Assembly (NCBI RefSeq): GCF_900116295.1
Contig: NZ_FPAF01000013.1
Location: 1 to 64,000 of the forward strand
Direction of reading: 5' to 3'
Length of the DNA: 64,000 nt
DNA from: Bacillus sp. 103mf
GTDB lineage: Bacteria > Bacillota > Bacilli > Bacillales > Bacillaceae_G
The stretch's first letter is position 1; each line of letters opens with the position of its first letter. Position numbers and translations under genes: made by a program. Positions 14,179 through 32,585 of this stretch are shown one piece after another. The notes beneath the pieces were generated by a model. That model did not search any database and had not been told where the DNA came from. It was given only the letters and a program-made list of their open reading frames with translations.

Positions 14179-15552
14179 TTACTTTATTGTATAACAAGAT
14201 TTTTCAATCTCTTCCCATTGCATATAAACTCGAACAATATCTTCTTCAATCAGTTCACTGCCTGATTGTACTTCAATAAATTCTAAATCTGTTACTGCTT
14301 TAATGGCATGCTTTTCACCAGGTTTAATTTCTAATACATCACCTGGGCGAACAACTTTAAATTTATCATTTAACACAAACACACCTTCACCTTTTACAAC
14401 TGTCCATACTTCACTACGATTATTATGATATTGATAGCTTAAATTTTTTCCAGCTGTAATGCCAATGCGTTTTGTTAACACTTCATTTCCATTTTCATAT
14501 TTTGTATAATCCAATACACGGTACCAGCCCCAACGGCGTTCTTCATACATTGGACGTTGATCCCAATCTCCCACTAACTCTTTCACTCGTGGACTTGCTT
14601 CCTTATCAGAAACTAAAATACCATCTGGACTTGCTGCTATAATAATATTGGAAAGCCCTAATACAGAGACAGGAATATCTAATTCATTAATAATATGATT
14701 GTTCTCACATTCTTCACTCATATTTCCTTTTCCAATCATACTTGTTCCCATTTCTTCAGTAAGTGTATTCCAGGTCCCAAGATCTTTCCAAGATCCATTA
14801 TAAGGAAGGGCAATAATATCTTTTGTTTTCTCAACTACTTCATAATCAAAACTTATTTTAGGCAAATCACTATATTGTTTTAATAATTGATCATATTGAA
14901 CTGGAAATCCTTTTTGATCTAATAACGAAATAATTTTGTCTAATTTAAATGCAAAAACACCACAATTCCAAAGTGCTTCCAATTCAATAAGTTTAATCGC
15001 CTCTTCTTGTTTTGGTTTTTCTTTAAAATGACTCACTTGAATATAATTCGAATGACTTTCCTTTACATTAGGAACGATATAGCCATACTTTTCAGAAGGA
15101 TATGTAGGAGTAACTCCCATTAAAGCCAAATCAGCTTCTGAAGATTGTAATGTTTTCTCTAAATCCAATAGTCTCTCGAAGAAATTATCCTCTACATATG
15201 GATCTACAGGCAACACCCCGATAATTTCATTTGTGTCCACATTTTGTTTTGAGTATAAGTAAGAAGCTGCTAAAGCAATAGCAGGAAACGTATCTCGACG
15301 TTCTGGTTCAATAATAATCGGTACATTTTGTCCTAATTGACTATTAATCATATCTACTTGAGATTTACTTGTTGCAATAACAGTATTTTTCTCCAATCTA
15401 AGTGCTGTTAATTGCCCCCAAACTCTCTGAACCATAGATTGTAGCTCATTATTATCTGCCTTAAGAACTTTTAAAAATTGTTTTGAACGTGAATCATTAG
15501 ATAACGGCCATAAACGTTTCCCTGATCCACCTGATAATAATATTAATTTCAT
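14179..15552 (-). CDS. manC: Mannose-1-phosphate guanylyltransferase / mannose-6-phosphate isomerase
   Basis: This 457-residue bifunctional enzyme has an N-terminal nucleotidyltransferase domain starting with LSGGSGKRLWPLS (residues 6-18) and FKEKPK near 176. A C-terminal cupin isomerase domain contains the conserved block YQYHNNRSEVWTVVKGEG (about 378-395). It makes GDP-mannose from mannose-1-phosphate and can interconvert fructose-6-P and mannose-6-P. It is the last gene of the polysaccharide operon, so the polymer probably contains mannose or a GDP-mannose-derived sugar. No GDP-mannose-modifying enzyme is seen nearby. Confidence 0.93.
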   Translation of the reverse strand: MKLILLSGGSGKRLWPLSNDSRSKQFLKVLKADNNELQSMVQRVWGQLTALRLEKNTVIATSKSQVDMINSQLGQNVPIIIEPERRDTFPAIALAASYLYSKQNVDTNEIIGVLPVDPYVEDNFFERLLDLEKTLQSSEADLALMGVTPTYPSEKYGYIVPNVKESHSNYIQVSHFKEKPKQEEAIKLIELEALWNCGVFAFKLDKIISLLDQKGFPVQYDQLLKQYSDLPKISFDYEVVEKTKDIIALPYNGSWKDLGTWNTLTEEMGTSMIGKGNMSEECENNHIINELDIPVSVLGLSNIIIAASPDGILVSDKEASPRVKELVGDWDQRPMYEERRWGWYRVLDYTKYENGNEVLTKRIGITAGKNLSYQYHNNRSEVWTVVKGEGVFVLNDKFKVVRPGDVLEIKPGEKHAIKAVTDLEFIEVQSGSELIEEDIVRVYMQWEEIEKSCYTIK

Positions 15553-15606
15553 ATAATACTTCTACCTCTTTTCATAAAAATTAAAAGAGTGAAGGATATG
15601 CTTCCT

Positions 15607-16731
15607 TCACTTAGAAAATCTTTCCTTATATCGTTCTTCTACCATATTTTTTAGCTCTTCTTTAAATCTCTCTGGAGAAAATCTAATAGAATTTTCTCTA
15701 CAATTAGAAGAACTAAACTGATCATAGTTTCGTTCAAATTCATCTACTGCTTTTACAATACTTTCTACAGTTTGTTCTTTAAAGAACAATCCCGTTGGTT
15801 TTTCATGACTTAAATCTAATACAGTTTCCATTGCTCCACCCTTACCATAAGCAATAACAGGTGTTCCGCATGCTTGAGCCTCTACCGGTGTAATACCAAA
15901 ATCTTCTTCCGCAGCAAATACAAAACCTTTTGCACGTTGCATATAATCTTTTAATACCTCAAAAGATTGATATCCTAAAAGTTCAACATTTCCTTTTGCC
16001 TTAGACTTTACCTTTTCAAAATCAGGTCCATCACCAATTACCACTAACTTTTTATCTGGCATAGATGCAAAAGCTTCTACAATTAAATCAATTTTTTTAT
16101 AAGGAACCATACGGGATGCAGTTACATAAAACTCTTCCTTTTGTTCATGTAGTGTAAATGCAGTAATATCAACAGGCGGATAAATAACCGTTGACTCTCT
16201 TCGGTATACTTTCCATATTCTGCGTCCAATAAATTTAGAGTTACCTACAAAATGATCAACACCATTGGCAGTACGGTAATCCCAATTTCTTATTTTATGA
16301 AGGATAGTCTTTGTAATGAATCCCTTAATTCCTTTTTCTAAATTTGCTTCTTTTAAATATTGATGTTGTAAATCCCATGCATAACGAATAGGTGAATGAA
16401 CATAAGAGATATGCAACTGATCTGGTCCGGTTAAAACCCCTTTTGCTACAGCATGGGAACTAGAAAGAATAACATCATATTTAGATAAATCTAACTGTTC
16501 AATTGCCAAAGGCATTAAAGGTAGATAGTTTCTATATTTCTTCTTCGAGAAAGGTAACTTTTGAATAAAAGTGGTTTTCACTTCTTTGTTCTTTATAAAT
16601 TCTCTATTATCTCCTAAGTGATCTACAACACTAAATAAATCCGCTTCTGGAAAAACTTCTAACATTTGCTCTACAACTTTTTCAGCTCCTGCATATGTCA
16701 CAAACCAATCATGTACTATTGCTATTTTCAT
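15607..16731 (-). CDS. Glycosyltransferase family 4 (WbaZ-like)
   Basis: This 374-residue GT-B enzyme has an N-terminal acceptor-binding domain starting KIAIVHDWFVTYAGAEKV. Its C-terminal donor-binding domain has GDGPDFEKV near 237 and EEDFGITPVEAQACGTPVIAY near 281-301 (the EX7E retaining motif). The N-terminus and the stretch YVHSPIRYAWDLQHQY resemble mannosyl- or fucosyltransferases of the WbaZ group. Mannosyl transfer from GDP-mannose would fit the adjacent manC, but the donor is inferred. It overlaps the upstream glycosyltransferase by four bases. Confidence 0.85.
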   Translation of the reverse strand: MKIAIVHDWFVTYAGAEKVVEQMLEVFPEADLFSVVDHLGDNREFIKNKEVKTTFIQKLPFSKKKYRNYLPLMPLAIEQLDLSKYDVILSSSHAVAKGVLTGPDQLHISYVHSPIRYAWDLQHQYLKEANLEKGIKGFITKTILHKIRNWDYRTANGVDHFVGNSKFIGRRIWKVYRRESTVIYPPVDITAFTLHEQKEEFYVTASRMVPYKKIDLIVEAFASMPDKKLVVIGDGPDFEKVKSKAKGNVELLGYQSFEVLKDYMQRAKGFVFAAEEDFGITPVEAQACGTPVIAYGKGGAMETVLDLSHEKPTGLFFKEQTVESIVKAVDEFERNYDQFSSSNCRENSIRFSPERFKEELKNMVEERYKERFSK

Positions 16732-17825
16732 TTAGATACACCACTAATCTTAAAATATATTTGTTTTGTACACTTTACCATTTGTTGCACGCTATATTTA
16801 TTAACAACCTTTTCCCTAGATCCATTTGACATGTTTATCCACTTTTCTTTCTCGTGCAGCTCAATAATCCCATCAACCGCTCCATTTACATCTTCTAAAT
16901 CGTATAAATATCCTTCTTTACCGTGATCCACAATATCTCTATTACCAACTACATTAGATAAGACAGCTGGCAATCCTAATGACATAGCTTCCAACACAGC
17001 TAATGGCATCCCTTCCCATTTAGCAGATGACAAATAAATATTATGATTTTTCATTTCTTTTATTACATACTGAGTTGGACCGAAAAATAAAATGTTATTA
17101 TTTATATTTTTTTTATTTACATACTCTTGCAGTTCCTTCATTTGAGAACCTTGTCCTATAAAAGTTAGCGTTGCATTCTCAAAACCGGTCTTTTTAATTA
17201 ACTCTTCCATTATTTCTATAGAATGCTTAGAATTTTTCTGATTATCAAATCTTGTAACAGATACAACCTTTAAAGTTTTATTTTCATTAATCACTCTATC
17301 TTCGGGAATTTCTACACCGTTCACAATAACATTCAGTTTATTACTTTGTACCAACTTTACCGTATTTACCTTATCTTGTTCCCCGTCTGATACGCAAATA
17401 AACTCATTCGTAAAGCGAGATAGAATTCGTTCAATTAATATATAAACTTTATTGATTACATTTTTATAATCCAAGTGTATACCATGAAAAGTATGCACTA
17501 TTTTTACTCTCTTAAGAGAAAGAACCTTTAATAAGCGACTGTAAATGCCAGCGCCTTTACCGTGCGAATGAATAATATCGATATTATTGTCCTTTATAAA
17601 TTTCAATATTTCTAAATGGGATTTTAAAACGAACTTTCTATGAGGAATTTTTATTAACTTCTCCTCACCTAATAATTGTTTATATTTATCCCAATATGGT
17701 TCTTCTTGTGGACAAGCGACATAGAATTCTATATCATTATCCATATTCTTCATTAAGCGATATACATGTTCAGGTCCCCCGCCATAATCTGCTCTAACTG
17801 TTATTAATAACACCTTTTTTTTCAC
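16728..17825 (-). CDS. Glycosyltransferase family 4
   Basis: This is a 365-residue GT-B enzyme. The N-terminal domain contains RADYGGGPEHVYRLM and HSHGKGAGIYSRLL. The donor domain contains VSVTRFDNQKN, TFIGQGSQ and WEGMPLAVLEAMSLGLPAVLS (EX7E motif). It belongs to the EpsF/RfaB-like group that elongates lipid-linked repeat units on the cytoplasmic face. The donor and acceptor cannot be named from sequence. It overlaps the next gene by four bases and follows the previous by ten. Confidence 0.85.
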   Translation of the reverse strand: MKKKVLLITVRADYGGGPEHVYRLMKNMDNDIEFYVACPQEEPYWDKYKQLLGEEKLIKIPHRKFVLKSHLEILKFIKDNNIDIIHSHGKGAGIYSRLLKVLSLKRVKIVHTFHGIHLDYKNVINKVYILIERILSRFTNEFICVSDGEQDKVNTVKLVQSNKLNVIVNGVEIPEDRVINENKTLKVVSVTRFDNQKNSKHSIEIMEELIKKTGFENATLTFIGQGSQMKELQEYVNKKNINNNILFFGPTQYVIKEMKNHNIYLSSAKWEGMPLAVLEAMSLGLPAVLSNVVGNRDIVDHGKEGYLYDLEDVNGAVDGIIELHEKEKWINMSNGSREKVVNKYSVQQMVKCTKQIYFKISGVSK

Positions 17826-17835
17826 AATTAATCAC

Positions 17836-18987
17836 CTATTCTAAGACTTCTTTTAGCAGATTATCCACTCTACTAGTCCAGCTATTTTTTTTAGCAAAAC
17901 TAATATATTTCTCTTTATCAGTATCTTTTACCGTTTCCCTGACTGCTTCTACAAATCCCTCTAGGTTTTCAGCTAATTTAGCTGGACTATTTATATATTC
18001 CAATTCTCTCCACTTTGTACTAACAACTGGAATTCCACAAACCATATATTCATACAACTTTAAAGGATTCACATAGTCCAATAAGTGTGCATAGTCTTTA
18101 ACATTAAATGGTATAATCCCTACATTAGCATGTTGAAGATAAGCTGGCAGTTGATCATAGCTTCTTCTACCTAAAATATGAACATTTTCATGATCATCAA
18201 TATGTTCTTTCGCTAATTGATCAGGTCCAATAACTACAAACGCAATATCTGGCATCATTTTCGCCATTTCATTAAATAAATGAAAATCAAACCATTCTTC
18301 TATAGCACCTACATAAACAACAATTGGTTTATCAATTAATTTATATTCAATCGGTTGTTCCTGCTTTTTTAAGAAATGATCTAGATTAACACCATTTGGA
18401 AAATATAATGTATCTTTAGGCCCTAAGCTATTTACATGCTCTTCTAATGTATGGGCCGTATATAAAACACGATCTACACTTTGAGATAACTTAGCTTCCG
18501 CATTCCCTAATGCGTTCGTATGATTAGAAAAACCAGAGTTTTTATCTGCCATTCTAAAAACCGATTTTTTACAATCAATAAAGTCTAACAAGTAATTTTG
18601 AAGACCATTATCGAAATAAAGTAAATCCACTTTTCTAAACCCTTTGGACTCTATTAATTTATTAATATTGGGGTAAGTAAGCTTATTCCAGTTATTATAT
18701 ATAAACTCACTGCTTAAGATTGGTTTATTATTAGGTGTTAATAATGCTCCCGGCACATACGACCAAACTTGTCCATCTCCATGCATCTCTCCACCCTTTT
18801 TATACACTTCATATCGATCATAAAACTCCTTAGTAGGTGAAAATACTCTATGAACCGGTGAAATAGGGGCCGAAACATACGCAATCTCCCAGCCCTTTTT
18901 CACTAATTCTTTAGCGATGTGATGTGTTCCTACTTGGAATGGAGAATTCCAATAGTTACTAGTTGCAAACAATGCTTTCTTTTTCAT
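17836..18987 (-). CDS. Glycosyltransferase, GT-B fold (TuaH/GumK-like)
   Basis: This 383-residue protein starts with KKALFATSNYWNSPFQVGTHHIAKEL, typical of a GumK/TuaH-like group of glycosyltransferases. The C-terminal half has VYVGAIEEWFDF and NPLKLYEYMVCGIPVVSTKW, the donor-binding region. GumK itself transfers glucuronic acid, which would suit an acidic polymer, but the donor here is not determined. Its start lies 29 bp inside the 3' end of the polymerase gene, so translation is likely coupled. Confidence 0.78.
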   Translation of the reverse strand: MKKKALFATSNYWNSPFQVGTHHIAKELVKKGWEIAYVSAPISPVHRVFSPTKEFYDRYEVYKKGGEMHGDGQVWSYVPGALLTPNNKPILSSEFIYNNWNKLTYPNINKLIESKGFRKVDLLYFDNGLQNYLLDFIDCKKSVFRMADKNSGFSNHTNALGNAEAKLSQSVDRVLYTAHTLEEHVNSLGPKDTLYFPNGVNLDHFLKKQEQPIEYKLIDKPIVVYVGAIEEWFDFHLFNEMAKMMPDIAFVVIGPDQLAKEHIDDHENVHILGRRSYDQLPAYLQHANVGIIPFNVKDYAHLLDYVNPLKLYEYMVCGIPVVSTKWRELEYINSPAKLAENLEGFVEAVRETVKDTDKEKYISFAKKNSWTSRVDNLLKEVLE

Positions 18988-20239
18988 TTAAATTTCTCCT
19001 TGGTAACTCTATATTATTAACTTTATTCTCGTTCGTTTGAATATTTAAACTAAGTAGAATCCCACCAAAGAATATTAACCAATATCCTAATGAGAAATCA
19101 AAAGGTCTTTGGTATATGGACATAAAATAAAATAATGCAAAAACCATCGCTGTTTTGTTTTTTTCTTTAAGGCATATATAAAGAAAGAATAGCAAGTGTA
19201 ATATTAATAGAAAATACCCATTAATAATTGTGAAAGTTTTCCACGACAAAGCATCTGATTTATAATTCAAAGCTTTATCAAAATACTTTTTCTCACCCAT
19301 CCCAAAAAGCTGTTCTCTTATACCACTATTTTTAAAATCATTATATACATAAGTAAAACCGTCATTGGTTCGATTATTCCCAGCTAAACCATTATCGGTA
19401 ATTTCAAATCGATAGAGAATCCTATTATATAAATACGAATCTTTAGGAGTAAGAGAGAAAATAAGAATATATGCAATAATAAATAAAAAGAAATATTTTT
19501 TACTTCTTAGTAGAAGATATAAGCCAATTAACATATAAAAGGCCATAGATAAAGATAAAATTCCCGCTATAAGAATTATCTTTTCGTACAATCTATTTAA
19601 TTTAAATCTTTTTGAAATCAAAATTAAAGCACTCACGGTTCCTACTACACCAGGTTCATTGAACATGGCACACATTCTATCAATACTTCCTCCATACGAA
19701 AAGAAATACTGCTCAGAAATGTTATGATACACTGCGTAATTCGCACTCCATAAATACTGACGATAATATGATTTACTCGTAGAATAAGCAACTAAATTAT
19801 CCCAATTCAAATCAATACCTATCAGCAATAACAGAGCAACAATTATTGCAGGAATATACGAAATAGCTATTATTTTAATGAAATTATCATATATCTTTAA
19901 CTTCATTTCATTGGTTAATAGTACAAAAGGAACTAGTACAGCACATAAAAATAAAAGACTATATAAAATTTTGTATACTTCTTCATATCTAAAGCTATAT
20001 AGTAATACTAAAAAAATTACACCAAATGCCAATTTTATATTTTTTTTAGAAATAATATTACATTTAATGGAAATTAAGGAAAAACAGGAAATATAAACAA
20101 CACCTACTACTTCTTTTAATTTATTTCCCCATACAAAAAAAGGCTCTAGTGTTAAAAAAGCTAAAAAAGCTGCTATGAGTATAAATATTTTGATGACCAA
20201 GCTGTTCGTAATAGCGTTATGATTTTGCAAATTAATCAT
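18959..20239 (-). CDS. O-antigen-polymerase-like membrane protein (Wzy)
   Basis: This is a 426-residue, very hydrophobic protein with about ten to twelve membrane segments. A larger loop at about residues 255-335 contains RFEITDNGLAGNNRTNDGF and GMGEKKYFD, a Wzy/WaaL-type feature (Gly- and Asn-rich exposed loop). No sequence motif defines the class strictly, so the call rests on topology and position between flippase and glycosyltransferases. It would polymerise the exported repeat units on the outer face. The gene is notably AT-rich, as usual for polymerase genes. Confidence 0.75.
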   Translation of the reverse strand: MINLQNHNAITNSLVIKIFILIAAFLAFLTLEPFFVWGNKLKEVVGVVYISCFSLISIKCNIISKKNIKLAFGVIFLVLLYSFRYEEVYKILYSLLFLCAVLVPFVLLTNEMKLKIYDNFIKIIAISYIPAIIVALLLLIGIDLNWDNLVAYSTSKSYYRQYLWSANYAVYHNISEQYFFSYGGSIDRMCAMFNEPGVVGTVSALILISKRFKLNRLYEKIILIAGILSLSMAFYMLIGLYLLLRSKKYFFLFIIAYILIFSLTPKDSYLYNRILYRFEITDNGLAGNNRTNDGFTYVYNDFKNSGIREQLFGMGEKKYFDKALNYKSDALSWKTFTIINGYFLLILHLLFFLYICLKEKNKTAMVFALFYFMSIYQRPFDFSLGYWLIFFGGILLSLNIQTNENKVNNIELPRRNLNEKESIVCN

Positions 20240-20564
20240 CCTAACTACAATTAAAATATTTAAATTGATACTGTATTAAAAAAATCCCCCTATAATTAGG
20301 ACGTTATTTTCAATAAAATATTGACCTATGGGTGCGATGAATAATGTTTCATTTATAAAAATTCCATAAATTAAAATATGCTATGAGTAACACTTCAAAA
20401 AAACAATTTGTAATAACAAATAAAAAACATTTTAGACACACAAAAATTAACAAGCATATAAAAATCATCCAAAAGAAGAATATCCTTTCTATTCAACAGC
20501 CTGTTAATTCTATAAATGTTCTACTTTTCTATCCATATCATTTCATTTCATCTCAAAACATATA
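20240..20564. other. AT-rich spacer inside the polysaccharide operon
   Basis: A 325-bp gap separates the heparinase-like gene from the wzy-like gene, both leftward. It is very AT-rich with no convincing gene on either strand. A 61-codon rightward reading at 20383 lacks a ribosome site and has low-complexity Lys/Asn/Ile content. I see no clear terminator. It may be a scar of gene loss or hold an internal promoter. Confidence 0.4.
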
Positions 20565-22784
20565 TTAAATTAAACTCATTATTCTTCCATAACCATTTGA
20601 ATAATAATTAAAATGAGCAATTCTTTGGTTAGATCCATAATCAGAGATAACTATTCTATCACTCATAATATCTATTACCCTATATACTTTCGTACCAAAA
20701 CCATTATGGCATCCCACAAATCTTATTGAACTTAACTCTAAACACTCACTTTTTGTATTTTCTTTTAACATAAACAACCCAGGTAATCCTTGATAATATT
20801 CATTTTGCTCTTTGTTATCAATTTGAATAGTAAAGTGAGCATTCGTAGATCTAAATACATTTCGTTTCTCTGGAATTGCTGTATATAGATATGTTCCAGG
20901 ATCTTTTATAATTTCTTCCCCATTAATTACTAATTCAAGGCTAAGCTGATCATTATGATCATGACTACCCTTTCCGTTACTTCCAAGAGGCCCACATTTA
21001 ATAGCTAAATACAAATTTTTTGAAGAGTAAATGTATACTCCAAAATTAGGGTAAGAAACTACTTTTAAATTTTCTACTAAATTTGAATTTGATAGATATA
21101 CATATTCAACAAATTGTGATTGTTTTCTTAATGACTGTATTCTTTTCTCATCTTCTTTATTTAATGATTTTATCAATGCATTATTAATCATTACTTGTTG
21201 ATTACTTTTATCCTTTTTATTAAAATTCCCTTTTAGTAGGCTTTTAATAATCTTATTCTCTATAGAAGGAACCTCTACATACCGATCAAAATCGTCTCTC
21301 TCAAAAAAAGCATTAATTCCAGCTACTAAATAACGGTGATCTAAGAAATTTTCATCCCAATAATTTTCATCGTCACGTGCACTATAATTTTGTAAATTTA
21401 AATATACTTCTTTTGCTTTTTTTACAGACAATAACTGATATATCGGTTGTATTTTGAAGAATCTCCCACTATCATTATCACCAAATTGTATAATTTCCTT
21501 ATTTGGTTTCGTTATAGCCACAGTAAATTCTGCGATTTTTTCTAATCTATCTATATACCAATCAGGGAAAATTTTTCTATCTGTTATTTTCCAAAAATAA
21601 CTTGCATTAAGGTTAAAACCTTTTTTCTTACAAATTACATTATGCTGCTCCACATTATAATTCTTTAGTATCTTCTTTTTATGTTCTGGTAATGCATATC
21701 CTAAGGTGGTAACATATAGTGCTAATTCTCCTGATAGTCGATGATATGCAGTGGAATGTTCAAAATTTGCACCTTCATCATAGAATTGTGCATGCATTTC
21801 TTGAATACTTTCTTGGAATGCGAAACATAACCATTCCTTCGTTTCCTCTGTAATAGGAAGATATGCGGCAATAAAAAATAGACCTACAATATTAGAATAG
21901 TAGTGGTTATTACGCACTTCACCATTACGTTCTAAGTGATTATAAATAAAATTCCCATGATCATATATAGAAAGACTAAATACTCTTTCGAACTCTTCGG
22001 TAAACGTTACCCCTTGCGCTCTGAATAAATCATATACTAACAACCAATTAGCGGCTCTAATTGCAACATCCATTGCACAAACCCAGTTCACTCCAAACTT
22101 AGGTGGATTCATGGATATAAAATCTAACACTTCATCTTGAAACTCAGCCACATATATTTCTGGCTCTTTGAAATCTTCTTTTCCTTGATTCGCTAACATA
22201 TATGCCCATACATATTGAACTAAATGTTGCATACGCGATAATTCCCACGGAACTTTAATGTCTGCACCTAAGTCCTGACCGTAACGAATTTGAGAATAGT
22301 GTAATTTTGAATCCCAGCAGTAACCCGATTTGAAGTCTAAACGCCAGTCAATTGGACTATAGTTGCTAGTTATCATATTTCTTATTTTTTTACTATATAG
22401 CTTATTTTCCTTATTAATGAGACATGAAATATCCTCATTGATATCTACTATAGGTGCTTTATATTTGAATTCTTCTATGCCATTACAAATCATATTATAT
22501 TTTATATTTATCCAACCAGATCCTAACAAATCAAAAGAATGGTTCAAATACAATGTTGATAACTCTTTAATTTGTAAAATTTCCATTTGGGAAAAATCAT
22601 GTACTATAGATTCTGATAATATACGCTCTATCTCGTATTTATTTAATGTTTGCGAGTATGTAGAAGTTCCACTATCTTTTAAAGCTTCCGTTCTTTTTAA
22701 TACTTTTTGCTTTATTTTTCTGGTAATTTTACCTACTATTTCTTTAGGAGTTAATTCCTTAACTTTTTTCACATAATAAGACAT
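20565..22784 (-). CDS. Heparinase II/III-family polysaccharide lyase
   Basis: This 739-residue protein begins with an alpha/alpha-toroid region (about 150-480) with NNHYYSNIVGLFFIAAYLP and FEHSTAYHRLSGELALYV. A beta-sandwich heparinase II/III domain follows (about 560-739) with the catalytic-type motif SHDHNDQLSLEL. No signal peptide is evident. Such lyases cleave uronic-acid-containing polysaccharides; inside a Wzx/Wzy operon one may trim the polymer, as AlgL does in alginate operons. The C-terminus ends soon after AHFNYYSNGYG and may be shorter than family members. Confidence 0.85.
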   Translation of the reverse strand: MSYYVKKVKELTPKEIVGKITRKIKQKVLKRTEALKDSGTSTYSQTLNKYEIERILSESIVHDFSQMEILQIKELSTLYLNHSFDLLGSGWINIKYNMICNGIEEFKYKAPIVDINEDISCLINKENKLYSKKIRNMITSNYSPIDWRLDFKSGYCWDSKLHYSQIRYGQDLGADIKVPWELSRMQHLVQYVWAYMLANQGKEDFKEPEIYVAEFQDEVLDFISMNPPKFGVNWVCAMDVAIRAANWLLVYDLFRAQGVTFTEEFERVFSLSIYDHGNFIYNHLERNGEVRNNHYYSNIVGLFFIAAYLPITEETKEWLCFAFQESIQEMHAQFYDEGANFEHSTAYHRLSGELALYVTTLGYALPEHKKKILKNYNVEQHNVICKKKGFNLNASYFWKITDRKIFPDWYIDRLEKIAEFTVAITKPNKEIIQFGDNDSGRFFKIQPIYQLLSVKKAKEVYLNLQNYSARDDENYWDENFLDHRYLVAGINAFFERDDFDRYVEVPSIENKIIKSLLKGNFNKKDKSNQQVMINNALIKSLNKEDEKRIQSLRKQSQFVEYVYLSNSNLVENLKVVSYPNFGVYIYSSKNLYLAIKCGPLGSNGKGSHDHNDQLSLELVINGEEIIKDPGTYLYTAIPEKRNVFRSTNAHFTIQIDNKEQNEYYQGLPGLFMLKENTKSECLELSSIRFVGCHNGFGTKVYRVIDIMSDRIVISDYGSNQRIAHFNYYSNGYGRIMSLI

Positions 22785-22850
22785 AAAAAGACTCTTCTCC
22801 TATTTGGATAATATATTTCTGTAACAATTCAAAGAAAGATTTTTGTGTCA

Positions 22851-24125
22851 TTATTGTTTTTTAAATTTATTAAACACACGAAATACGATTGCATATTGTA
22901 AACATAACATTATAAAACCGTTAAATATTTGCGCCCATGCAATTCCTATAACACCAAAATTTTGCGAAGTCACATAATTAACTATTAAAGCAATAGGTGC
23001 CGAAACAGCAGTTACATAAAAATTTTCTTTCATTCTACCTAATGCCAGTAGCGTGACACCCATAATCGCATACGATGAATACAATACATATTTAATCATT
23101 AATATACCAGTGTATGTGATTGTGCTTTTATATGCATCTCCATAAAAGAGAGGAACAAATACTAAGGAAACCATATATACTGCTAATCCTGCAAATATAC
23201 TTAAAAATATTGCCTTTTTCTGAACATTAAAGGCCATTTTCTTTAAATCTTTATAGTTATTACTTTTTTCTGTTAAGTAAGGTGTGTATATACTTTGCAG
23301 CGTGGCTGTAATTTGAGTAGCACCTAACAGAAATATCGTAGCAATCGAGTAATACCCCATCTCAACACGATCGGTTACAAAGTTATCCATAATAATAATA
23401 TCCGCATAGTTCCCTATATTGTTTACGAAATTAGCCAAGAAACTAAAAAAAGCAATTCCCCAAAATTGCTTAGGTATATCTATGCTCATGTCATTTAATC
23501 TCTTAGCAGGCTTTGCTTCTTTAAATAAAGGATATAATCCGATAGCTAACCCTAAAACAGTGGCGATAATAAAACCTTTTACACCAAATAACCAAGTACC
23601 AACGATTATAAATAACGCACTCTGTATTTTTATAATCGCTTGCATGCTTGCCATCTTATTAACCCTTTTTAAAGCTAGTAAATAATTCATTAATATATTC
23701 GTTAAAGCTAATATAGGTACACATAAAGTATATATGCTCCAATGAATCGAATATTGTTTAGAAATAAAAATTAAGAATACATTAAATAGTAAAATAGATA
23801 GAGTAGAAAACAACAAGCTATTTCGCACGGAATAAGCAAGAATTTTATCTTTCTGGCTATCGTCTCGCTTTTCTGCACCAAATTTTAATATGGCCGTATC
23901 TAAACCAAAAGTTCCGAGTATGACCGCTAGTGTTAAATACGTTTGTAAACTTCTGATTTGTGCCATACTTTCGGGAGTGATAAATTTAGCAACTAATATA
24001 ATACTTCCAAATCCTAAAAACTGAACCAAGAATTTAGTAAGTAATAAACTAAAAAAACCCTTCTTTCCTAGTTGAACCAAACTATTACGGACTTTATTGC
24101 CAAGGGCTATTAAACGATCATTCAT
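22851..24125 (-). CDS. Polysaccharide flippase (Wzx, MATE/MVF-like)
   Basis: This is a 424-residue membrane protein with about 12 hydrophobic segments of the polysaccharide-transport (PST/Wzx) family. It starts with a cytoplasmic stretch followed by FFSLLLTKFLVQFLGFGSIILVAKF, typical of Wzx N-termini. It would flip undecaprenyl-diphosphate-linked repeat units to the outer face. Its start is one base after the stop of the upstream glycosyltransferase, within one operon. Confidence 0.87.
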   Translation of the reverse strand: MNDRLIALGNKVRNSLVQLGKKGFFSLLLTKFLVQFLGFGSIILVAKFITPESMAQIRSLQTYLTLAVILGTFGLDTAILKFGAEKRDDSQKDKILAYSVRNSLLFSTLSILLFNVFLIFISKQYSIHWSIYTLCVPILALTNILMNYLLALKRVNKMASMQAIIKIQSALFIIVGTWLFGVKGFIIATVLGLAIGLYPLFKEAKPAKRLNDMSIDIPKQFWGIAFFSFLANFVNNIGNYADIIIMDNFVTDRVEMGYYSIATIFLLGATQITATLQSIYTPYLTEKSNNYKDLKKMAFNVQKKAIFLSIFAGLAVYMVSLVFVPLFYGDAYKSTITYTGILMIKYVLYSSYAIMGVTLLALGRMKENFYVTAVSAPIALIVNYVTSQNFGVIGIAWAQIFNGFIMLCLQYAIVFRVFNKFKKQ

Positions 24126-24126
24126 T

Positions 24127-25119
24127 TTATACTTTCTCCTTCAATGCCTCATTCATCTTACTTATACAATCATCTACTTTAGCTGCAAAATCATCTAAAT
24201 CTCTATTTTTAAATAATACCGTTCCTTCTGGTCTCTTACATACATCACTTGCAACTGCTGGGCAGCCTAAGTATATAGCCTCTTCTATGCTAATCCCATA
24301 TCCATCACTATATGTTGGACGTATCATTAAGTCTGCATGTTTAAAAAGTGGCCATAATTCTTTTTGTCCAGTAATAAAGTGAATATTATTTTCAAGTCCA
24401 CTTAACTTTATTGTTTCTTTCATTTCGTTAAAGTAATTCTCATCACCAATTTTTGCAATTGCAAAAACCAATCCAATATCTTCATACGTTTCTTTCAACT
24501 TAGCAACCATCTTAATACTTATATCTAAACCATATAAGTCAAATCCATCATGAAATGTAATTACAGAAGCATTCCCCACCATAAGAGGTCTTGCTTTTGT
24601 TATAAACTCTTTCGTTTCATATGAATAAGTATTCATAATTCTTTCTTCATCTTCCATTGGAGGAGGTACGAAAGGAGATTGTATCGTTATCTTCTTTGGT
24701 AATGGCAAATTGTTTTTCACATAGCCATCCTTCAAATGCTCCCCTACCATAATACATTCATCTATTTTTTTTACGAATAGGCTAGCAATCCATCTTTGAA
24801 TCTTCCCAAGATTGTCTAATCTTCTTATTGAATGATGATGTAAAATAATTTGAGCTTTAAAAGGCCTAAATATCAACATTAGCATTAAAGGGAATTTAAA
24901 ACCGTCTAAATGAAATGTATGATGAGAAGGCGATAAAAAGCTTGTAATAAATAAAAATTTTAATTTCTCATAAAAAGACAATCTTGAAAAATCTATTACT
25001 TCAACCTGAATCCCCATTGATTCTAACCTTTTTTTAGAACGGTAAATATAGACACTTACTCCCCCTAAAGGAGGGGGATAAGGCCCTATCAAAAAATATT
25101 TCTTTTGATTCATCTCCAA
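24127..25119 (-). CDS. Glycosyltransferase family 4
   Basis: This 330-residue GT-B enzyme has the N-terminal glycine motif GPYPPPLGGVSVYIYRSKKR and the donor-domain motif YSDGYGISIEEAIYLGCPAVAS near 275-296 (EX7E-like). It is somewhat shorter than typical GT4 enzymes. It overlaps the dehydrogenase gene by ten bases, so translation is likely coupled. The donor sugar cannot be read from the sequence; ManNAcA from the adjacent dehydrogenase is a reasonable guess. Confidence 0.83.
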   Translation of the reverse strand: MEMNQKKYFLIGPYPPPLGGVSVYIYRSKKRLESMGIQVEVIDFSRLSFYEKLKFLFITSFLSPSHHTFHLDGFKFPLMLMLIFRPFKAQIILHHHSIRRLDNLGKIQRWIASLFVKKIDECIMVGEHLKDGYVKNNLPLPKKITIQSPFVPPPMEDEERIMNTYSYETKEFITKARPLMVGNASVITFHDGFDLYGLDISIKMVAKLKETYEDIGLVFAIAKIGDENYFNEMKETIKLSGLENNIHFITGQKELWPLFKHADLMIRPTYSDGYGISIEEAIYLGCPAVASDVCKRPEGTVLFKNRDLDDFAAKVDDCISKMNEALKEKV

Positions 25120-26351
25120 ATTCCTCTTGTATCAATAACAACTTTTTCATTTAATGTTAAACGATCAATATCCTTAAATGAGTCATGGTCTACCAGTAAT
25201 ACAATAATATCCGCTTTAGATATAGTAGCTGCTGTAGAATCTAGTTCAATGCCTAACTCGCTTAGTTTATCAGGTAATTTTTGGATGTTCGGTTCAGAAA
25301 CTATAATTTCCCCCAATTGTTGCTTAGCTAAATACTCTACTATTTCAACTGCCGGACTCTCACGCAAATCATCAATATTAGCCTTAAATGCTAAACCTAA
25401 ACAAGCAATAACAGGATTTTTAAATTTATCTGCTTTTTCACGTATTTTATCTACTACGTAACCTGGTTTATAATCATTCACTATTCTCGCTGTATGAATA
25501 AGTTTTGCTTGCTCTGGTGCTGCATCTACAATAAACCAAGGATCAACTGCGATACAATGTCCCCCTACTCCTGGTCCTGGTTGTAGAATATTTACACGTG
25601 GATGTCGATTTGCTAAATTAATTAGTTCCCAAACATTAATATTTAGCTCATCACAAATCATAGATAACTCATTAGCAAACGCGATATTTACATCTCTGAA
25701 TGAGTTTTCTGTTAGTTTTGCCATTTCCGCTGTTCTAGCATTTGTTTCAAGTATTTTACCTTTTACAAACTTCTTATAGAAGTTTACCGTTTTCTTTGTA
25801 GACTCAGAATTAATACCACCGATAATACGATCGTTTTCTACTAACTCCCTTAAAATATGTCCTGGAAGTACTCTTTCAGGACAGTGTGATACGTAGAAAA
25901 CACCTTTATTTGAATTTAATTCTTCAGTTATAGTTAAGTCTTCACGTTCTTCTAAAATCCATTTTGTAACTTTTTCTGTCGTTCCCACTGGACTTGTAGA
26001 CTCTAAAATTACTAGGTCTCCTTGTTTTACATATGGTGCTATTGTTTTTGTCGCTTGCTCGACATATGTTAAATCTGGTTTATGATTATCTTTAAAAGGT
26101 GTCGGAACAGCTAGTATAAATACATCAGCTACTTCTGGTTCTATTCCAGCCTTTAGATTCCCACTTTGTACAGCGGCTTTTACCATAATATCTAAATCTG
26201 GTTCATAAATATGTACTTTTCCGCTATTAATCATTTCTACAGCATCTGTATTAACATCTATTCCATATACTTGAAACCCTTTGGTTGCTAATAAACTAGC
26301 TGTTGGTAATCCAATGTAACCCAATCCTACTACACAAACTTTTTCGTTCAT
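25110..26351 (-). CDS. UDP-N-acetyl-D-mannosamine dehydrogenase (WecC-type)
   Basis: This is a 413-residue nucleotide-sugar 6-dehydrogenase. The N-terminal Rossmann motif is GLGYIGLPTASLLA. The catalytic Cys block GPGVGGHCIAVDPWF (near 260) is of the WecC type, unlike the GFGGSCFPKD of UDP-glucose dehydrogenases. The C-terminal domain has LGLAFKANIDDLRESPA. It oxidises UDP-ManNAc to UDP-ManNAcA with NAD, giving an acidic sugar. The epimerase that makes UDP-ManNAc is not in the window. The start at 26351 has a 9-nt spacing to GGAAAGG; an in-frame ATG three codons upstream abuts that site. Confidence 0.88.
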   Translation of the reverse strand: MNEKVCVVGLGYIGLPTASLLATKGFQVYGIDVNTDAVEMINSGKVHIYEPDLDIMVKAAVQSGNLKAGIEPEVADVFILAVPTPFKDNHKPDLTYVEQATKTIAPYVKQGDLVILESTSPVGTTEKVTKWILEEREDLTITEELNSNKGVFYVSHCPERVLPGHILRELVENDRIIGGINSESTKKTVNFYKKFVKGKILETNARTAEMAKLTENSFRDVNIAFANELSMICDELNINVWELINLANRHPRVNILQPGPGVGGHCIAVDPWFIVDAAPEQAKLIHTARIVNDYKPGYVVDKIREKADKFKNPVIACLGLAFKANIDDLRESPAVEIVEYLAKQQLGEIIVSEPNIQKLPDKLSELGIELDSTAATISKADIIVLLVDHDSFKDIDRLTLNEKVVIDTRGIWR

Positions 26352-26388
26352 ATCTGACATCCTTTCCGTGTTAAACCAATAAAACTAA

Positions 26389-27069
26389 TTAATAAGCCCC
26401 TTTTCTTAATACCACATTTACTACTGTTAAAAATAGAATCTTTATATCAAAAAATAGAGAAGCATTATATACATAATGTAATTCTAAATCTACTCGTTCT
26501 GGATATCCTACATTACTCCTACCACTTACCTGCCAATAACCCGTTAACCCAGGACTTACAGATAAGAAATCTGCTGTCTTGGATCCGTATTCTTTAAGTT
26601 CTTCTTGCACTACTGGTCTTGGGCCAACTAAACTCATTTCCCCCTTAAGCACATTAATGAATTGTGGCAATTCATCGAGACTTGTTTTTCTTAAGAAGCG
26701 ACCGAGATTGGTAATACGTGGATCTTCTTCTGGCTCAAGTTTATAATTGTTGTCTATATATTTTTTATATAATACCTCATTCTGTCTTAATTTTTGTTCA
26801 GCATTTACAACCATCGAACGAAATTTATAAATATGAAATACCTTCCCGTTTTTTCCTATGCGAACTTGTTTAAAGAATACTGGTCCTTTATTATCTCCTC
26901 GCATGTATAGGATTGGAATAAGAATAAATACAGGGGAAAAAATAAGCAAACCTATAACTCCACCGACAATATCTATTATTCTTTTTAAGAATAAATACAC
27001 AATACTAGGTTTGCTTACTACAGTAGCACTTTGTTGTACAGACTCACTTAGCGCACCTTGATTTTCCAA
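26389..27069 (-). CDS. Initiating undecaprenyl-phosphate sugar-1-phosphate transferase
   Basis: This 226-residue enzyme of the bacterial sugar transferase family is the short form (PglC/EpsL-like) with one membrane re-entrant hydrophobic segment (about 27-55). Motifs include FKQVRIGKNGKVFHIYKFRSM, TSLDELPQFINVLKGEMSLVGPRP, and SPGLTGYWQVSGRS. It loads the first sugar phosphate onto undecaprenyl phosphate and so starts repeat-unit synthesis. The donor (UDP-Glc, UDP-Gal or an N-acetyl sugar) cannot be told. Confidence 0.92.
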   Translation of the reverse strand: MENQGALSESVQQSATVVSKPSIVYLFLKRIIDIVGGVIGLLIFSPVFILIPILYMRGDNKGPVFFKQVRIGKNGKVFHIYKFRSMVVNAEQKLRQNEVLYKKYIDNNYKLEPEEDPRITNLGRFLRKTSLDELPQFINVLKGEMSLVGPRPVVQEELKEYGSKTADFLSVSPGLTGYWQVSGRSNVGYPERVDLELHYVYNASLFFDIKILFLTVVNVVLRKGAY

Positions 27070-27966: not shown

Positions 27967-28023
27967 AATTAGTCCCCCTAATCACAATCTTTTTATATCC
28001 GCTTATAGTAATATCAAAACAAT

Positions 28024-28074
28024 AAAAACCCTAGCTACAGTGTCCTTATACACAACTCCATAGCTAGAGTTTTT
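28024..28074 (-). terminator. Intrinsic terminator inside the polysaccharide operon
   Basis: A 14-bp stem with one mismatch (TAAAAACCC/AGCTA arms at 28024-28037 and 28061-28074) ends in TTTTTATTGTTTT on the minus strand. It lies between the phosphatase gene and galU, so biosynthetic genes are expressed only if it is bypassed or a second promoter follows. Confidence 0.85.
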
Positions 28075-28092
28075 ATAAATCATATTGGGCAT

Positions 28093-28196
28093 CTAACCCA
28101 TCCTCACGCCATGCTCCCGACGACAAGCGTCTAAGGTAGGTTGAAATAAAATTTCTACCCACAGCACAACCGAGTGCCTCCGTTGATAATGGTTAG
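28093..28196 (-). ncRNA. Structured leader RNA, EAR (epsC)-like candidate
   Basis: About 104 nt on the minus strand are closed by an outer stem: CUAACCAU (28196-28189) with AUGGGUUAG (28101-28093), 8 bp with one bulged G. Inside are a GCAC/GUGC hairpin with UCGGUU loop (28177-28164), GGUAG pairing with CUACC (28159-28155 with 28139-28135), and GACG/CGUC (28131-28119). It lies after the CpsC-CpsD-CpsB genes and just upstream of a terminator. That is where EAR antitermination RNA sits in Bacillales eps/capsule operons. The identity as EAR is inferred from position, size and folding, not from a search. Confidence 0.5.
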
Positions 28197-28217
28197 GAGA
28201 CATCACCATTGTTTACT

Positions 28218-28985
28218 TTAAAAAATACCAAATAATTTTTTACGACGAATTTGTTGTGGATCTTCCTTATAGATACTTTTACCACTTATTAACAAATGAG
28301 GATTTTCTTTGAAATCGATAAGCGTATTTGTGCCAAATTCATTTTCAATTACATCATATCCGGCTTGTAAATAAAATGCTCTTGTCGTTGTGTTATGCGC
28401 ATCCGATGCTATCATATGTGTTAAGTTATGTTCAACGAGCTGCAGTGAGAATTTTTTAATTTTTTTACCGAAGTTTCCAAGTAAACTCCCTGCTGTTACT
28501 TGTGTTAACGCTCCTTTATTTACGAGGTTATATAACTTATCTGGCTGTTCGATTAACTCGGCATTACGTTCGGGGTGAACAATAATGGGAATCATACCCT
28601 TTACTCGTAATTCGTATAACATTTGTTCAGCATAACGTGGTACGTGATTGGATGGAAATTCAATTAATATATATTTATTCGTTTCATTTAATGTGAGAAT
28701 TTTACCAGCTTCATAATCTGCTAATAAATCCCCGTATAAACGAACTTCTTGACCTGGTAACACAGTTAGAGGAATATCATGTTCTTGGAGCGCTTCATTT
28801 AATTGTTTTACTTGGTAAAGAATCTCTGCGCGCTCATTAATATATTTGCCGTTTTGATGATGCGGAGTTGCAACAATTGTATGGATGCCTTCTGCCGCTG
28901 CTTTTTGTGCCATCGCTAGACTATCCGTTAACGTCCCGGCCCCGTCATCGATACTAGGCAAAATATGACAATGTAAATCGATCAT
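28218..28985 (-). CDS. PHP-family tyrosine-protein phosphatase (CpsB/YwqE type)
   Basis: This 255-residue metal-dependent phosphatase has PHP motifs DLHCH (3-7), TPHHQNG (near 40), HPERN (near 130), and SDAHN near 193. It dephosphorylates the tyrosine cluster of CpsD-type BY-kinases and so controls polymer synthesis and length. The start at 28985 is chosen because the ribosome site GGTGAGG precedes the ATG; a GTG three codons upstream overlaps that site. It is third in the CpsC-CpsD-CpsB module. Confidence 0.9.
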   Translation of the reverse strand: MIDLHCHILPSIDDGAGTLTDSLAMAQKAAAEGIHTIVATPHHQNGKYINERAEILYQVKQLNEALQEHDIPLTVLPGQEVRLYGDLLADYEAGKILTLNETNKYILIEFPSNHVPRYAEQMLYELRVKGMIPIIVHPERNAELIEQPDKLYNLVNKGALTQVTAGSLLGNFGKKIKKFSLQLVEHNLTHMIASDAHNTTTRAFYLQAGYDVIENEFGTNTLIDFKENPHLLISGKSIYKEDPQQIRRKKLFGIF

Positions 28986-29049
28986 TGTCCTCACCCTTTC
29001 TTCTTATATTTTTCAAGATGAAAGAGAAGTGCGCCGCGCGCACGTCCCT

Positions 29050-29754
29050 TTAGTTTGCACCGTAGTAATAATATAAGCTCTGTTCACGTTCACGATCGTT
29101 CAGAACAACACCTAGCAATTTACCTTTTGCAGATTCTAATAATGTTTTTGCTTTTAAGGCTGCTTCTTTTTCTGTTTGTTCACTACGTACAACAAGTACA
29201 GATGCATCACATTGGCTTGCCATAATTTGTGCGTCCGTTACCGGTAAGATTGGCGGCAAGTCGAAGATTACTAGATCATATAAGCTGAAAGTTTGACTAA
29301 GCAGTTCTTTCATCGCATTTGATCCAAGTAGTTCTGCAGGATTTGGCGGAATCGGACCAGATGGAAGAAAATCTAATTTATCTACTGCTGTTTTTTGAAT
29401 GCATTTTTCTAATTGTTCACCAGCTGTTAATACATTTGTTAAACCAAAAATGTTTTCAATTTGAAACATTTGGTGCGTTGCTGGTTTTCGTAAGTCTGCG
29501 TCGACAAGTAATACGCGCTTTCCTTGCTGGGCAAATACAACGGCAATATTTGATGTTGTCGTCGTTTTCCCTTCACTTGGATTCGCAGACGTCACCATTA
29601 AAGAATGAATTTTCATATCTACTGAGGCAAATTCAATATTTGTACGAATGTTGCGATATTGCTCAGAGATTGGTGATTTTGGCTGATGGTATGCAATTAA
29701 TTGACGACGTTGACGATGATTTTTCTTTTTCTTAAATAAACTTTTAAGAACCAA
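29050..29754 (-). CDS. CpsD/CapB-family bacterial tyrosine kinase
   Basis: This is a 234-residue BY-kinase. Walker A is SANPSEGKTTT (56-66), Walker A' VLLVDADLRKP near 85, and Walker B LVIFDLPPI near 175. A C-terminal tyrosine cluster (LYYYYGAN) is the autophosphorylation site. In this family the cytoplasmic kinase needs a separate membrane activator, here the CpsC-like protein encoded just upstream with an 11-bp overlap. It is dephosphorylated by the PHP phosphatase encoded downstream. Confidence 0.93.
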   Translation of the reverse strand: MVLKSLFKKKKNHRQRRQLIAYHQPKSPISEQYRNIRTNIEFASVDMKIHSLMVTSANPSEGKTTTTSNIAVVFAQQGKRVLLVDADLRKPATHQMFQIENIFGLTNVLTAGEQLEKCIQKTAVDKLDFLPSGPIPPNPAELLGSNAMKELLSQTFSLYDLVIFDLPPILPVTDAQIMASQCDASVLVVRSEQTEKEAALKAKTLLESAKGKLLGVVLNDREREQSLYYYYGAN

Positions 29755-30487
29755 TTGTTTGCCCCCTCACTTTCTTCGTTGACGCTGCATGTGATTTCTT
29801 CCCTACTTCTTCCTCATCCATACGTGCAACAATACCGAGAACTGGTAATCCTAGTAATTTCTCTACGTCTTCTTCTTTCTTTACAGTGTTGTCTAAATAT
29901 TCTAGTAAGAATGTTAGTCCAACAGATGCCATTAATCCTACGACAAGCGCAATTGCAATATTTATCATCGGACGCGGCTTGATCGGAGATTGATTTTCTG
30001 CCACTTCTGCTTTCGATAAAACAGTTACGTTATCTACCCTCATAATTTTAGCAACTTCAACTTTAAATATTTCCGCTGTTGTGTTTGCGATATCACGTGC
30101 TACTTTTGGATCTTTATCTTGTGTTGTTACTGTTACTACTTGTGAATCTTTCTCATTAGCAACTTCAATCTTTTCATTTAATTCTTGCGTTGTTATATGT
30201 AAACCTAGCTTTTCTTTCACTTGATCTAAAATAACAGGGCTTTTAATAATAACCTTATATGTATTGGTCAATTGAACATTCGTCTGAACTTCATTAAATT
30301 GAATCGCTGCTCCTTCTTGTTTCTTTTGGTTAACAAGAATTTGCGTTGAAGATTGATAGATTGGTGTCATAAAGAAAAAGCTCACAATCGCACTAATGAT
30401 TGCTGCTCCAAATGTAATAGAAAGGATCATCGCGAAGCGCTTTCGTAAAACTTGAAATAACTCTTTTAAACTAATCGTTTCTTCCAT
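29744..30487 (-). CDS. CpsC/YveK-type Wzz membrane activator of the tyrosine kinase
   Basis: This 247-residue protein has two membrane segments (about 17-37 and 173-193) flanking an extracytoplasmic Wzz domain. It has the proline-rich SPIKPRPM before TM2 and a cytoplasmic tail that activates the kinase. It is a polysaccharide co-polymerase controlling chain length. It is the first gene of the polysaccharide operon. Confidence 0.9.
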   Translation of the reverse strand: MEETISLKELFQVLRKRFAMILSITFGAAIISAIVSFFFMTPIYQSSTQILVNQKKQEGAAIQFNEVQTNVQLTNTYKVIIKSPVILDQVKEKLGLHITTQELNEKIEVANEKDSQVVTVTTQDKDPKVARDIANTTAEIFKVEVAKIMRVDNVTVLSKAEVAENQSPIKPRPMINIAIALVVGLMASVGLTFLLEYLDNTVKKEEDVEKLLGLPVLGIVARMDEEEVGKKSHAASTKKVRGQTIGS

Positions 30488-32559: not shown

Positions 32560-32585
32560 AAAACCGTCATCGTTATGACGGTTTT
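32560..32585 (-). terminator. fabZ terminator
   Basis: An 11-bp perfect stem (AAAACCGTCAT with ATGACGGTTTT) overlaps the fabZ stop codon and runs into TTTATTTAT of bcr1 copy C on the minus strand. Confidence 0.88.

What the first reader, a model, noticed from the sequence alone, without database searches (positions are those of the whole stretch)
28024..28196. EAR/epsC-like antitermination RNA candidate followed by an intrinsic terminator inside the polysaccharide operon
Between the CpsB phosphatase and galU lies a 104-nt domain closed by an 8-bp stem, with at least three internal helices, immediately before a strong terminator (28074-28024). In B. subtilis the EAR RNA sits after the regulatory genes of the eps operon and lets polymerase read through later terminators. 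The order here (kinase module, structured RNA, terminator, biosynthetic genes) is what such a mechanism needs. It would explain how 14 kb of downstream genes are expressed.
Basis: partly seen in the sequence, partly recalled or inferred. Interest (0 to 1): 0.75.

Follow-up and report, generated by a model that had tools for sequence, protein, structure and literature searches.

The report
EAR antitermination RNA with companion hairpin
The stretch is a known regulatory RNA, called EAR or epsC, that helps Bacillus and its relatives transcribe long sugar-polymer operons, and the hairpin beside it, which looked like an ordinary stop signal, belongs to a kind of hairpin that follows about two thirds of the EARs examined and often lacks the stop signal's U-tail.

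Summary
Rfam epsC/EAR (RF01735) matches window 28208-28086 (-) end to end, 118.8 bits, cut-off 42. Helices and 5' pseudoknot covary in 33 EARs. An EAR at this B. cereus-group locus is already in print (PMC3909190, PMC4935679), so the core is known.

The 'intrinsic terminator' (28077-28021) is what changes. EARs are often followed closely (median 10 nt) by one long hairpin, about 23 bp, that the Rfam model leaves out; I call it P6. A strong stem follows 84 of 113 EARs, 33 of 67 and 21 of 25. Controls: 0 of 339 and 1 of 335 shuffles, 0 of 112 and 2 of 21 stretches upstream of EARs, 26 of 827 other intergenic stretches. G-U exceed A-C appositions 249 to 61, pointing to sense-strand RNA. Only 48 of 117 stems have a T-rich 3' end, so P6 is not simply a terminator, though the window's copy could be one.

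Best reading: cis-acting processive antiterminator EAR plus companion hairpin P6, whose role is inferred. The founding 2010 paper was not readable here and may mention P6.

The parts
28086..28208 (-). EAR / epsC RNA (RF01735): pseudoknot strands 28208-28205 with 28193-28190; P1 28202-28196 with 28181-28175; P2 (multibranch closing helix) 28174-28163 with 28115-28103; P3 28160-28153 with 28145-28134; P4 28131-28128 with 28122-28119; P5 28100-28096 with 28090-28086
   Evidence: Rfam 118.8 bits, model 1-117 of 117; pairs mapped; covariation in 33 EARs
28021..28077 (-). P6: long hairpin 8 nt 3' of EAR (19-bp lower stem, 1x1 mismatch, short upper stem), 3' end T-rich (TTTTTATT then GTTTTG)
   Evidence: model R1 52.5 bits (the window is in the training set); stem statistics; energy; fold
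28218..28994 (-). CpsB/CapC-type phosphatase gene, 5' neighbour
   Evidence: PF19567, E 1.7e-59
29050..29754 (-). tyrosine-kinase (BY-kinase type) ATPase gene
   Evidence: PF13614; BY-kinase label by position, recalled
29744..30487 (-). Wzz-type chain-length / kinase activator gene
   Evidence: PF02706
27085..27966 (-). galU-type nucleotidyltransferase gene, 3' neighbour
   Evidence: PF00483, E 3.1e-37
14179..27069 (-). downstream polysaccharide genes (sugar transferase, UDP-glucose dehydrogenase, glycosyltransferases, flippase-type, heparinase-like, ManC-like): the genes that EAR would serve
15588..15611 (-). terminator-like hairpin inside the operon before the ManC-like gene: possible distal target of EAR
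   Evidence: consensus scan only

Best explanation
It is an EAR (epsC) RNA, a cis-acting RNA that acts as a processive antiterminator. Once transcribed, it folds behind RNA polymerase and converts the elongation complex into a form that reads through the hairpin 8 nt downstream and later termination sites, so that the galU-to-manC genes are made with the upstream kinase and phosphatase genes. Shown here: membership in RF01735, covariation, position in the polysaccharide operon, and a companion hairpin P6 that follows many EARs far above chance. From the literature: antitermination by EAR in B. subtilis. Inferred: that this copy works the same way, and the role of P6. My preferred role for P6 is a hard double-stranded end: it would protect the 3' end of the polymerase-bound EAR when the long mRNA is processed, and in lineages with a U-rich tail, such as this one, it would also serve as a first terminator that only EAR-modified polymerase passes.
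For: Rfam hit over the full model. EAR covariation: 112 doubly changed cells against 45.9 in shuffles, 92.1% of cells paired, pseudoknot pair of columns 2-22 changed on both sides in 21 of 33. EAR antitermination in B. subtilis: review passage in PMC7858274 and Weinberg 2010 passage. Same locus type named in print. P6: strong stem after 84 of 113 EARs against 0 of 339 shuffles and 26 of 827 other intergenic stretches; 33 of 67 further EARs; 21 of 25. P6 alignment: 233 doubly changed cells against 68.2. G-U 249 against A-C 61. By short motifs in the next reading frames, P6 is present before galU-like (10 of 13), epsC/capD-like (59 of 74), ugd-like (2 of 2) and other or unassigned (13 of 24) genes. 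RT-PCR in B. cereus ATCC 14579 gave one unit BC5276-BC5267 (PMC6976573, passages), which spans this junction if BC5276 is cpsB.
Against: No transcription experiment was possible. 29 of 113 EARs, 34 of 67 and 4 of 25 have no strong stem, so P6 is not essential to every EAR. Model R1, trained mainly on one sequence class of P6, finds only 21 of 69 non-training loci and also hits three places that look like ordinary bidirectional terminators, so P6 resembles terminators. The same 160-nt stretches read on the antisense strand pass the hairpin-plus-T-tract scan in 28 of 113 at -12 kcal/mol (sense 43 of 113), so much of that signal is palindromic. The 44 rows were chosen because they fold. Two of 21 stretches upstream of EARs also had strong stems. 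In one search the extra outer pseudoknot pair that I added (columns 1-23) fails in 25 of 28, and 2 of 500 shuffles reach the number of pairs with change on both sides. The gene numbering used to read the RT-PCR result is inferred. PMC6976573 calls this region (eps1) irrelevant for biofilm in ATCC 14579, while noting a contrary report for ATCC 10987, so the operon's role is unsettled.
Confidence: 0.82

Rival explanations
1. P6 is simply an intrinsic terminator, the nearest target of EAR, and the U-tract has decayed or is weak in many lineages. EAR plus terminator then forms an on/off gate after the regulatory genes.
For: Hairpin plus T-tract at dG -12 or below in 43 of 113 EAR loci against 2 of 339 shuffles, 11 of 112 stretches upstream of EAR and 11 of 339 random stretches. 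The window copy has 7 T in an 8-nt stretch. In the second set 17 of 33 stems have a T-rich end (18, which read further downstream). R1 also hits places that look like true bidirectional terminators.
Against: Only 48 of 117 stems have 6 or more T in 8 at the 3' end, only 16 of 117 have 5 or more T in the 8 nt outside the stem, and the T bias is barely directional (p = 0.135 with the stem ends, 0.017 outside). Several P6 copies are followed almost at once by a Shine-Dalgarno and gene (read by eye).
Confidence: 0.33
2. P6 is a working part of the antitermination module: as it folds near the RNA exit channel it helps EAR seat on polymerase, as two stem-loops do in HK022 put RNA.
For: Tight spacing: 50 of 64 model-matched P6 copies start 3-13 nt after EAR. 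P6 is found before different kinds of next gene. put RNA consists of two stem-loops (PMC9378689 passage).
Against: P6 is missing after a large minority of EARs and starts 120-174 nt away in three of the 64. Its sequence varies widely.
Confidence: 0.25
3. The structure is unrelated to EAR, or galU is driven by its own promoter at 28020-27970, so no antitermination is needed.
For: A 9-of-12 promoter-like pair at 28017. The ATCC 14579 paper predicts promoters at the start of its transcription units.
Against: 161 of 300 shuffles reach 9 or more; the scan lists none there on the minus strand (14 weaker sites not shown). The Rfam hit is at E 4e-20.
Confidence: 0.04

Closest known systems
EAR / epsC RNA of Bacillus subtilis epsA-O (Rfam RF01735; Irnov and Winkler 2010, cited by other papers, not read)
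   Same: Full-length model match, same helices and pseudoknot, position inside a polysaccharide operon after the kinase genes
   Different: The next gene here is galU rather than epsC. The following hairpin has a T-rich 3' end here; in the B. subtilis-group loci listed (L046, L051, L067, L071, L073, L074) a hairpin is present but its 3' end is not T-rich, and R1 misses L010, L040 and L047.
EAR of the Bacillus cereus-group eps locus BC5267-BC5278 (PMC3909190, PMC4935679; passages read)
   Same: Very probably the same element: same locus type and gene order (inference; no B. cereus-group genome was reached here)
   Different: The passages read describe only the 120-bp EAR, not the hairpin after it.
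HK022 put RNA
   Same: RNA-only processive antitermination in cis
   Different: No sequence or structural kinship tested. put is about 70 nt with two stem-loops, in a phage (PMC9378689 passage).
Intrinsic terminator
   Same: Long stem; T-rich end in the window copy
   Different: The comparable hairpin is not T-rich at its 3' end in 69 of 117 EAR loci with a strong stem

Membership tests
Rfam RF01735 epsC / EAR | Covariance-model score at or above 42 bits | tested here: met
   118.8 bits, model 1-117 of 117
Rfam RF01735 epsC / EAR | Conserved helices and 5' pseudoknot supported by covariation | tested here: met
   33 EARs, 16 of 41 pairs with change on both sides (2 of 500 shuffles reach this), covariation score 0.270 against 0.148 (0 of 500 reach it)
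Rfam RF01735 epsC / EAR | Lies within an exopolysaccharide or capsule operon of Bacillales | tested here: met
   Neighbouring genes by Pfam; that the host is of Bacillales rests on similarity to such loci
EAR as processive antiterminator | Read-through of distal terminators depends on the RNA | not testable with these tools
   Needs transcription assays; the RT-PCR unit in PMC6976573 is only consistent with it
Intrinsic terminator (for P6) | Stable stem | tested here: met
   -25.9 kcal/mol
Intrinsic terminator (for P6) | U-tract directly after the stem | tested here: inconclusive
   Window copy T-rich; class as a whole 48 of 117 T-rich at the 3' end, 16 of 117 by the outside-stem measure
Metabolite riboswitch (early proposal for epsC, PMC2864571 passage) | Ligand-dependent refolding that overlaps the terminator | not tested
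   EAR and P6 fold as separate domains in the minimum-energy structure; no ligand test possible

The most novel reading that the evidence does not exclude
EAR is usually a two-part element. The 120-nt EAR is commonly followed, within about 5-25 nt, by an RNA hairpin of about 23 bp (P6) that is kept by compensatory change across Bacillaceae and Paenibacillus, is missing from the Rfam model, and serves EAR function (end protection, seating on polymerase, or a built-in gate) rather than acting only as a terminator.
Probability: 0.6. Interest if true: 0.62.

Novelty: new variant of a known kind. Interest (0 to 1): 0.47.

Why it matters
EAR is one of two RNA-only processive antitermination systems named in an introduction passage read here (PMC8955417), the other being HK022 put. 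A recurrent partner hairpin gives a concrete, removable piece to test, and it warns that hairpins after EARs should not be annotated as plain terminators. It also gives a likely reason why the B. cereus-group polysaccharide operon can be transcribed through an apparent stop signal.

Tried and rejected
Plain terminator for P6: kept only as a rival, because of the U-tract counts. DNA palindrome (operator site): rejected, G-U appositions outnumber A-C 249 to 61 under strand-symmetric scoring. Promoter before galU: no better than shuffles. EAR in phages or plasmids: no match in phages, 0 exact-pattern matches in viral contigs; the two plasmid matches cover query positions 330-399 and 336-399, that is around the start of galU, not the EAR. 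Pairing of EAR with the arms of P6 as an attenuator: no alternative seen in the fold, not tested further. The long P3 arm of some EARs as a new domain: 5 of 57 predicted pairs have a change on both sides (all five in the insert) and the insert of L149 hardly aligns, so it looks like a tolerated expansion. A strict regular expression for EAR missed 48 of 90 loci and was replaced by table coordinates. Searches for print on a hairpin after EAR (10 or fewer relevant papers listed in each, of which I read passages of nine papers in all) showed none; the founding 2010 paper is not held, so I cannot say P6 is undescribed. Close B. cereus-group relatives were not reached: the best match that crosses the EAR is L124 at 77% over 1,104 bases; others reach 79.5% but over galU only.

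Rows dropped before counts: of 123 pattern matches, 6 lacked the standard 3' end or were cut (L021, L030, L055, L063, L064, L066; one search shows L055 and L064 to be true EARs) and 4 were second copies (L119, L120, L130, L141), leaving 113. The 51 hairpin references were picked by eye from the folds; 44 went into alignment A3 (left out: L010 with wrong bounds, and L041, L051, L074, L096, L098, L104). Of 90 further EARs, 23 were duplicates, leaving 67; these 90 came from the top of a list ranked by EAR score, not from a random draw. In one search, 25 of the 28 loci were scored (L130, L140, L141 left out as copies; L139, with an EAR under the cut-off, was in neither). My notebook entry miscounts; the figures in this report (14 of 17 places beside an EAR) are recounted from the output.

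Full report
What is there. The window carries a polysaccharide operon on the minus strand: an orphan tyrosine-kinase-type gene and a GNAT gene, then Wzz, kinase, CpsB phosphatase, then galU, a sugar transferase, UDP-glucose dehydrogenase, glycosyltransferases, a flippase-type gene, a heparinase-like gene and a ManC-like gene. Between CpsB (ends 28218) and galU (starts 27966) the RNA folds at -66.5 kcal/mol, z = -4.68 against shuffles.

EAR. Scanning all 64,000 bases against Rfam gives one hit over a curated threshold: RF01735 epsC at 28208-28086 (-), 118.8 bits, E 4.2e-20, full model. The alignment shows P1 to P5 intact. No family reaches its threshold over the next hairpin; the best there is NsiR1 at 20.4 bits against 39. 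With the Rfam helices and the 5' pseudoknot, 92.1% of cells pair, 16 of 41 pairs have a change on both sides (2 of 500 shuffles reach 16), and 112 cells are doubly changed against 45.9 in shuffles. The distal part of P3 does not align well (33.9% paired), and the outermost pseudoknot pair that I added fails in 25 of 28. EAR is common: 255 of 397 genomes drawn from the order have a match at E 0.001 or better, about 76 of them two or more (read by eye from the listing).

Prior print. The B. thuringiensis SinR paper (PMC3909190, passage) says an EAR is predicted in BC5267-BC5278. A review (PMC4935679, passage) repeats it. Weinberg 2010 (PMC2864571, passages) describes the epsC motif in Bacillales.

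The hairpin after EAR. A terminator scan (hairpin of -8 kcal/mol or better plus T-tract) of the 160 nt after EAR found one in 52 of 113 loci, the window included. At -12 or better it was 43 of 113, against 2 of 339 dinucleotide shuffles, 11 of 112 stretches upstream of EAR and 11 of 339 random stretches, but also 28 of 113 when the same stretches are read on the antisense strand. Looking at the sequences it became clear that a long hairpin is there in many loci without a T-tract. A stem-only score (ungapped stem, at most two 1x1 mismatches, threshold 30) is met by 84 of 113 EAR loci, against 0 of 339 shuffles, 0 of 112 upstream stretches, 1 of 339 random stretches and 26 of 827 other intergenic 120-mers. 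The median stem starts 10 nt after EAR, with 23 bp over 56 nt. Over the same 113 loci, 88 such stems lie within 200 nt after EAR and 106 anywhere else in about 0.9 Mb.

Further sets. Of 25 EARs from the family of the Ectobacillus genome, 21 pass, 8 of them with a T-rich end. In all, 138 of 205. Prevalence therefore varies by lineage and is far from universal.

Structure. An alignment of 44 of these hairpins, chosen because they fold, has 90.1% of cells paired, 28 of 28 pairs with change on both sides, and 233 doubly changed cells against 68.2 in shuffles; RNAalifold predicts the same hairpin. A covariance model from it (R1) finds P6 beside EAR in 18 of 27 loci outside its training set, including one near-copy pair (L124, L140), with no hit elsewhere in them up to E 1; the misses are a decayed EAR (L139), L142 and the seven long-arm EARs. 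In the 113 loci it finds 64 beside EAR (43 of 44 training, 21 of 69 others) and one elsewhere, 364 nt after an EAR, again up to E 1. In 20 whole genomes, where only 150 candidates per genome were scored, 17 places reach E 0.01: 14 beside an EAR and three that look like ordinary bidirectional terminators. With scoring that treats both strands alike, stems hold 249 G-U against 61 A-C appositions (172:47 and 77:14), which is what a sense-strand RNA helix, not a DNA palindrome, would give.

Terminator or not. Of 117 stems (84 + 33), 48 have 6 or more T in some 8-nt stretch around the 3' end, and 16 have 5 or more T in the 8 nt beyond the stem. The T excess over the mirrored A count is not significant with the stem ends (p = 0.135) and weak outside (p = 0.017). 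The window copy is among the most T-rich (7 in 8), and so is L124, the best relative whose match crosses the EAR. So P6 in this lineage may well terminate, but termination is unlikely to be the only reason that the hairpin recurs in the class as a whole.

Mechanism. Literature supports EAR as an RNA that acts on the elongation complex in cis. In B. cereus ATCC 14579 RT-PCR gave a unit BC5276-BC5267 (PMC6976573, passages); if BC5276 is CpsB, transcription crosses EAR and P6 there, as expected. That paper reports predicted promoters at unit starts, and calls the region irrelevant for biofilm in that strain while noting a contrary report for ATCC 10987. No promoter stands out between P6 and galU. 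For P6 I prefer, at modest confidence, protection of the 3' end of polymerase-bound EAR after mRNA processing, with an added gate where a U-tract exists; the rivals are listed. None of this was tested experimentally.

Verdict. Observation confirmed with corrected borders; EAR interpretation supported and already known; the companion hairpin is the new part, new only as far as the listings and passages seen go, with the founding paper unread.

Noticed in passing
L143-L149 at about 1501-1720: Seven EARs carry about 105 extra nt in the loop of P3, making a 213-223 nt EAR that still passes the Rfam threshold; in L143, read through, it lies between a CpsB-type and a galU-type gene. Covariation inside the insert is slight.
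   Followed up: partly
L139:1501-1607: An EAR below threshold (39.4 bits): P1 and the 5' strand of P2 remain, the 3' half looks replaced (read by eye). Apparently a decayed EAR.
   Followed up: no
L037, L060, L105, L155, L159: In these Geobacillus-type loci (L155 and L159 unnamed) the EAR is followed not by P6 but by a promoter-like TTTATAATAGAAA or TTTATAAATAGAAA stretch and another gene (read by eye).
   Followed up: no
order-wide search: About 76 of 255 EAR-bearing genomes hold two or three EARs, so EAR is not restricted to one eps operon per genome.
   Followed up: no
P6 in L007, L025, L070, L100, L115 and L084, L087, L103, L109, L111, L114: P6 comes in a few sequence classes (for example TATCTAATGA... 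and CAGTTAATAAAAG..., with variants), each shared by different genera, as if exchanged or sequence-constrained.
   Followed up: no
window 18959-20239 (-): 426-aa protein in the operon with no Pfam match at E 0.001; position suggests a polymerase or ligase of the O-antigen type.
   Followed up: no
window 32560-32585: Bidirectional terminator-like hairpin at the end of the FabA/FabZ-like gene, before the polysaccharide region.
   Followed up: no
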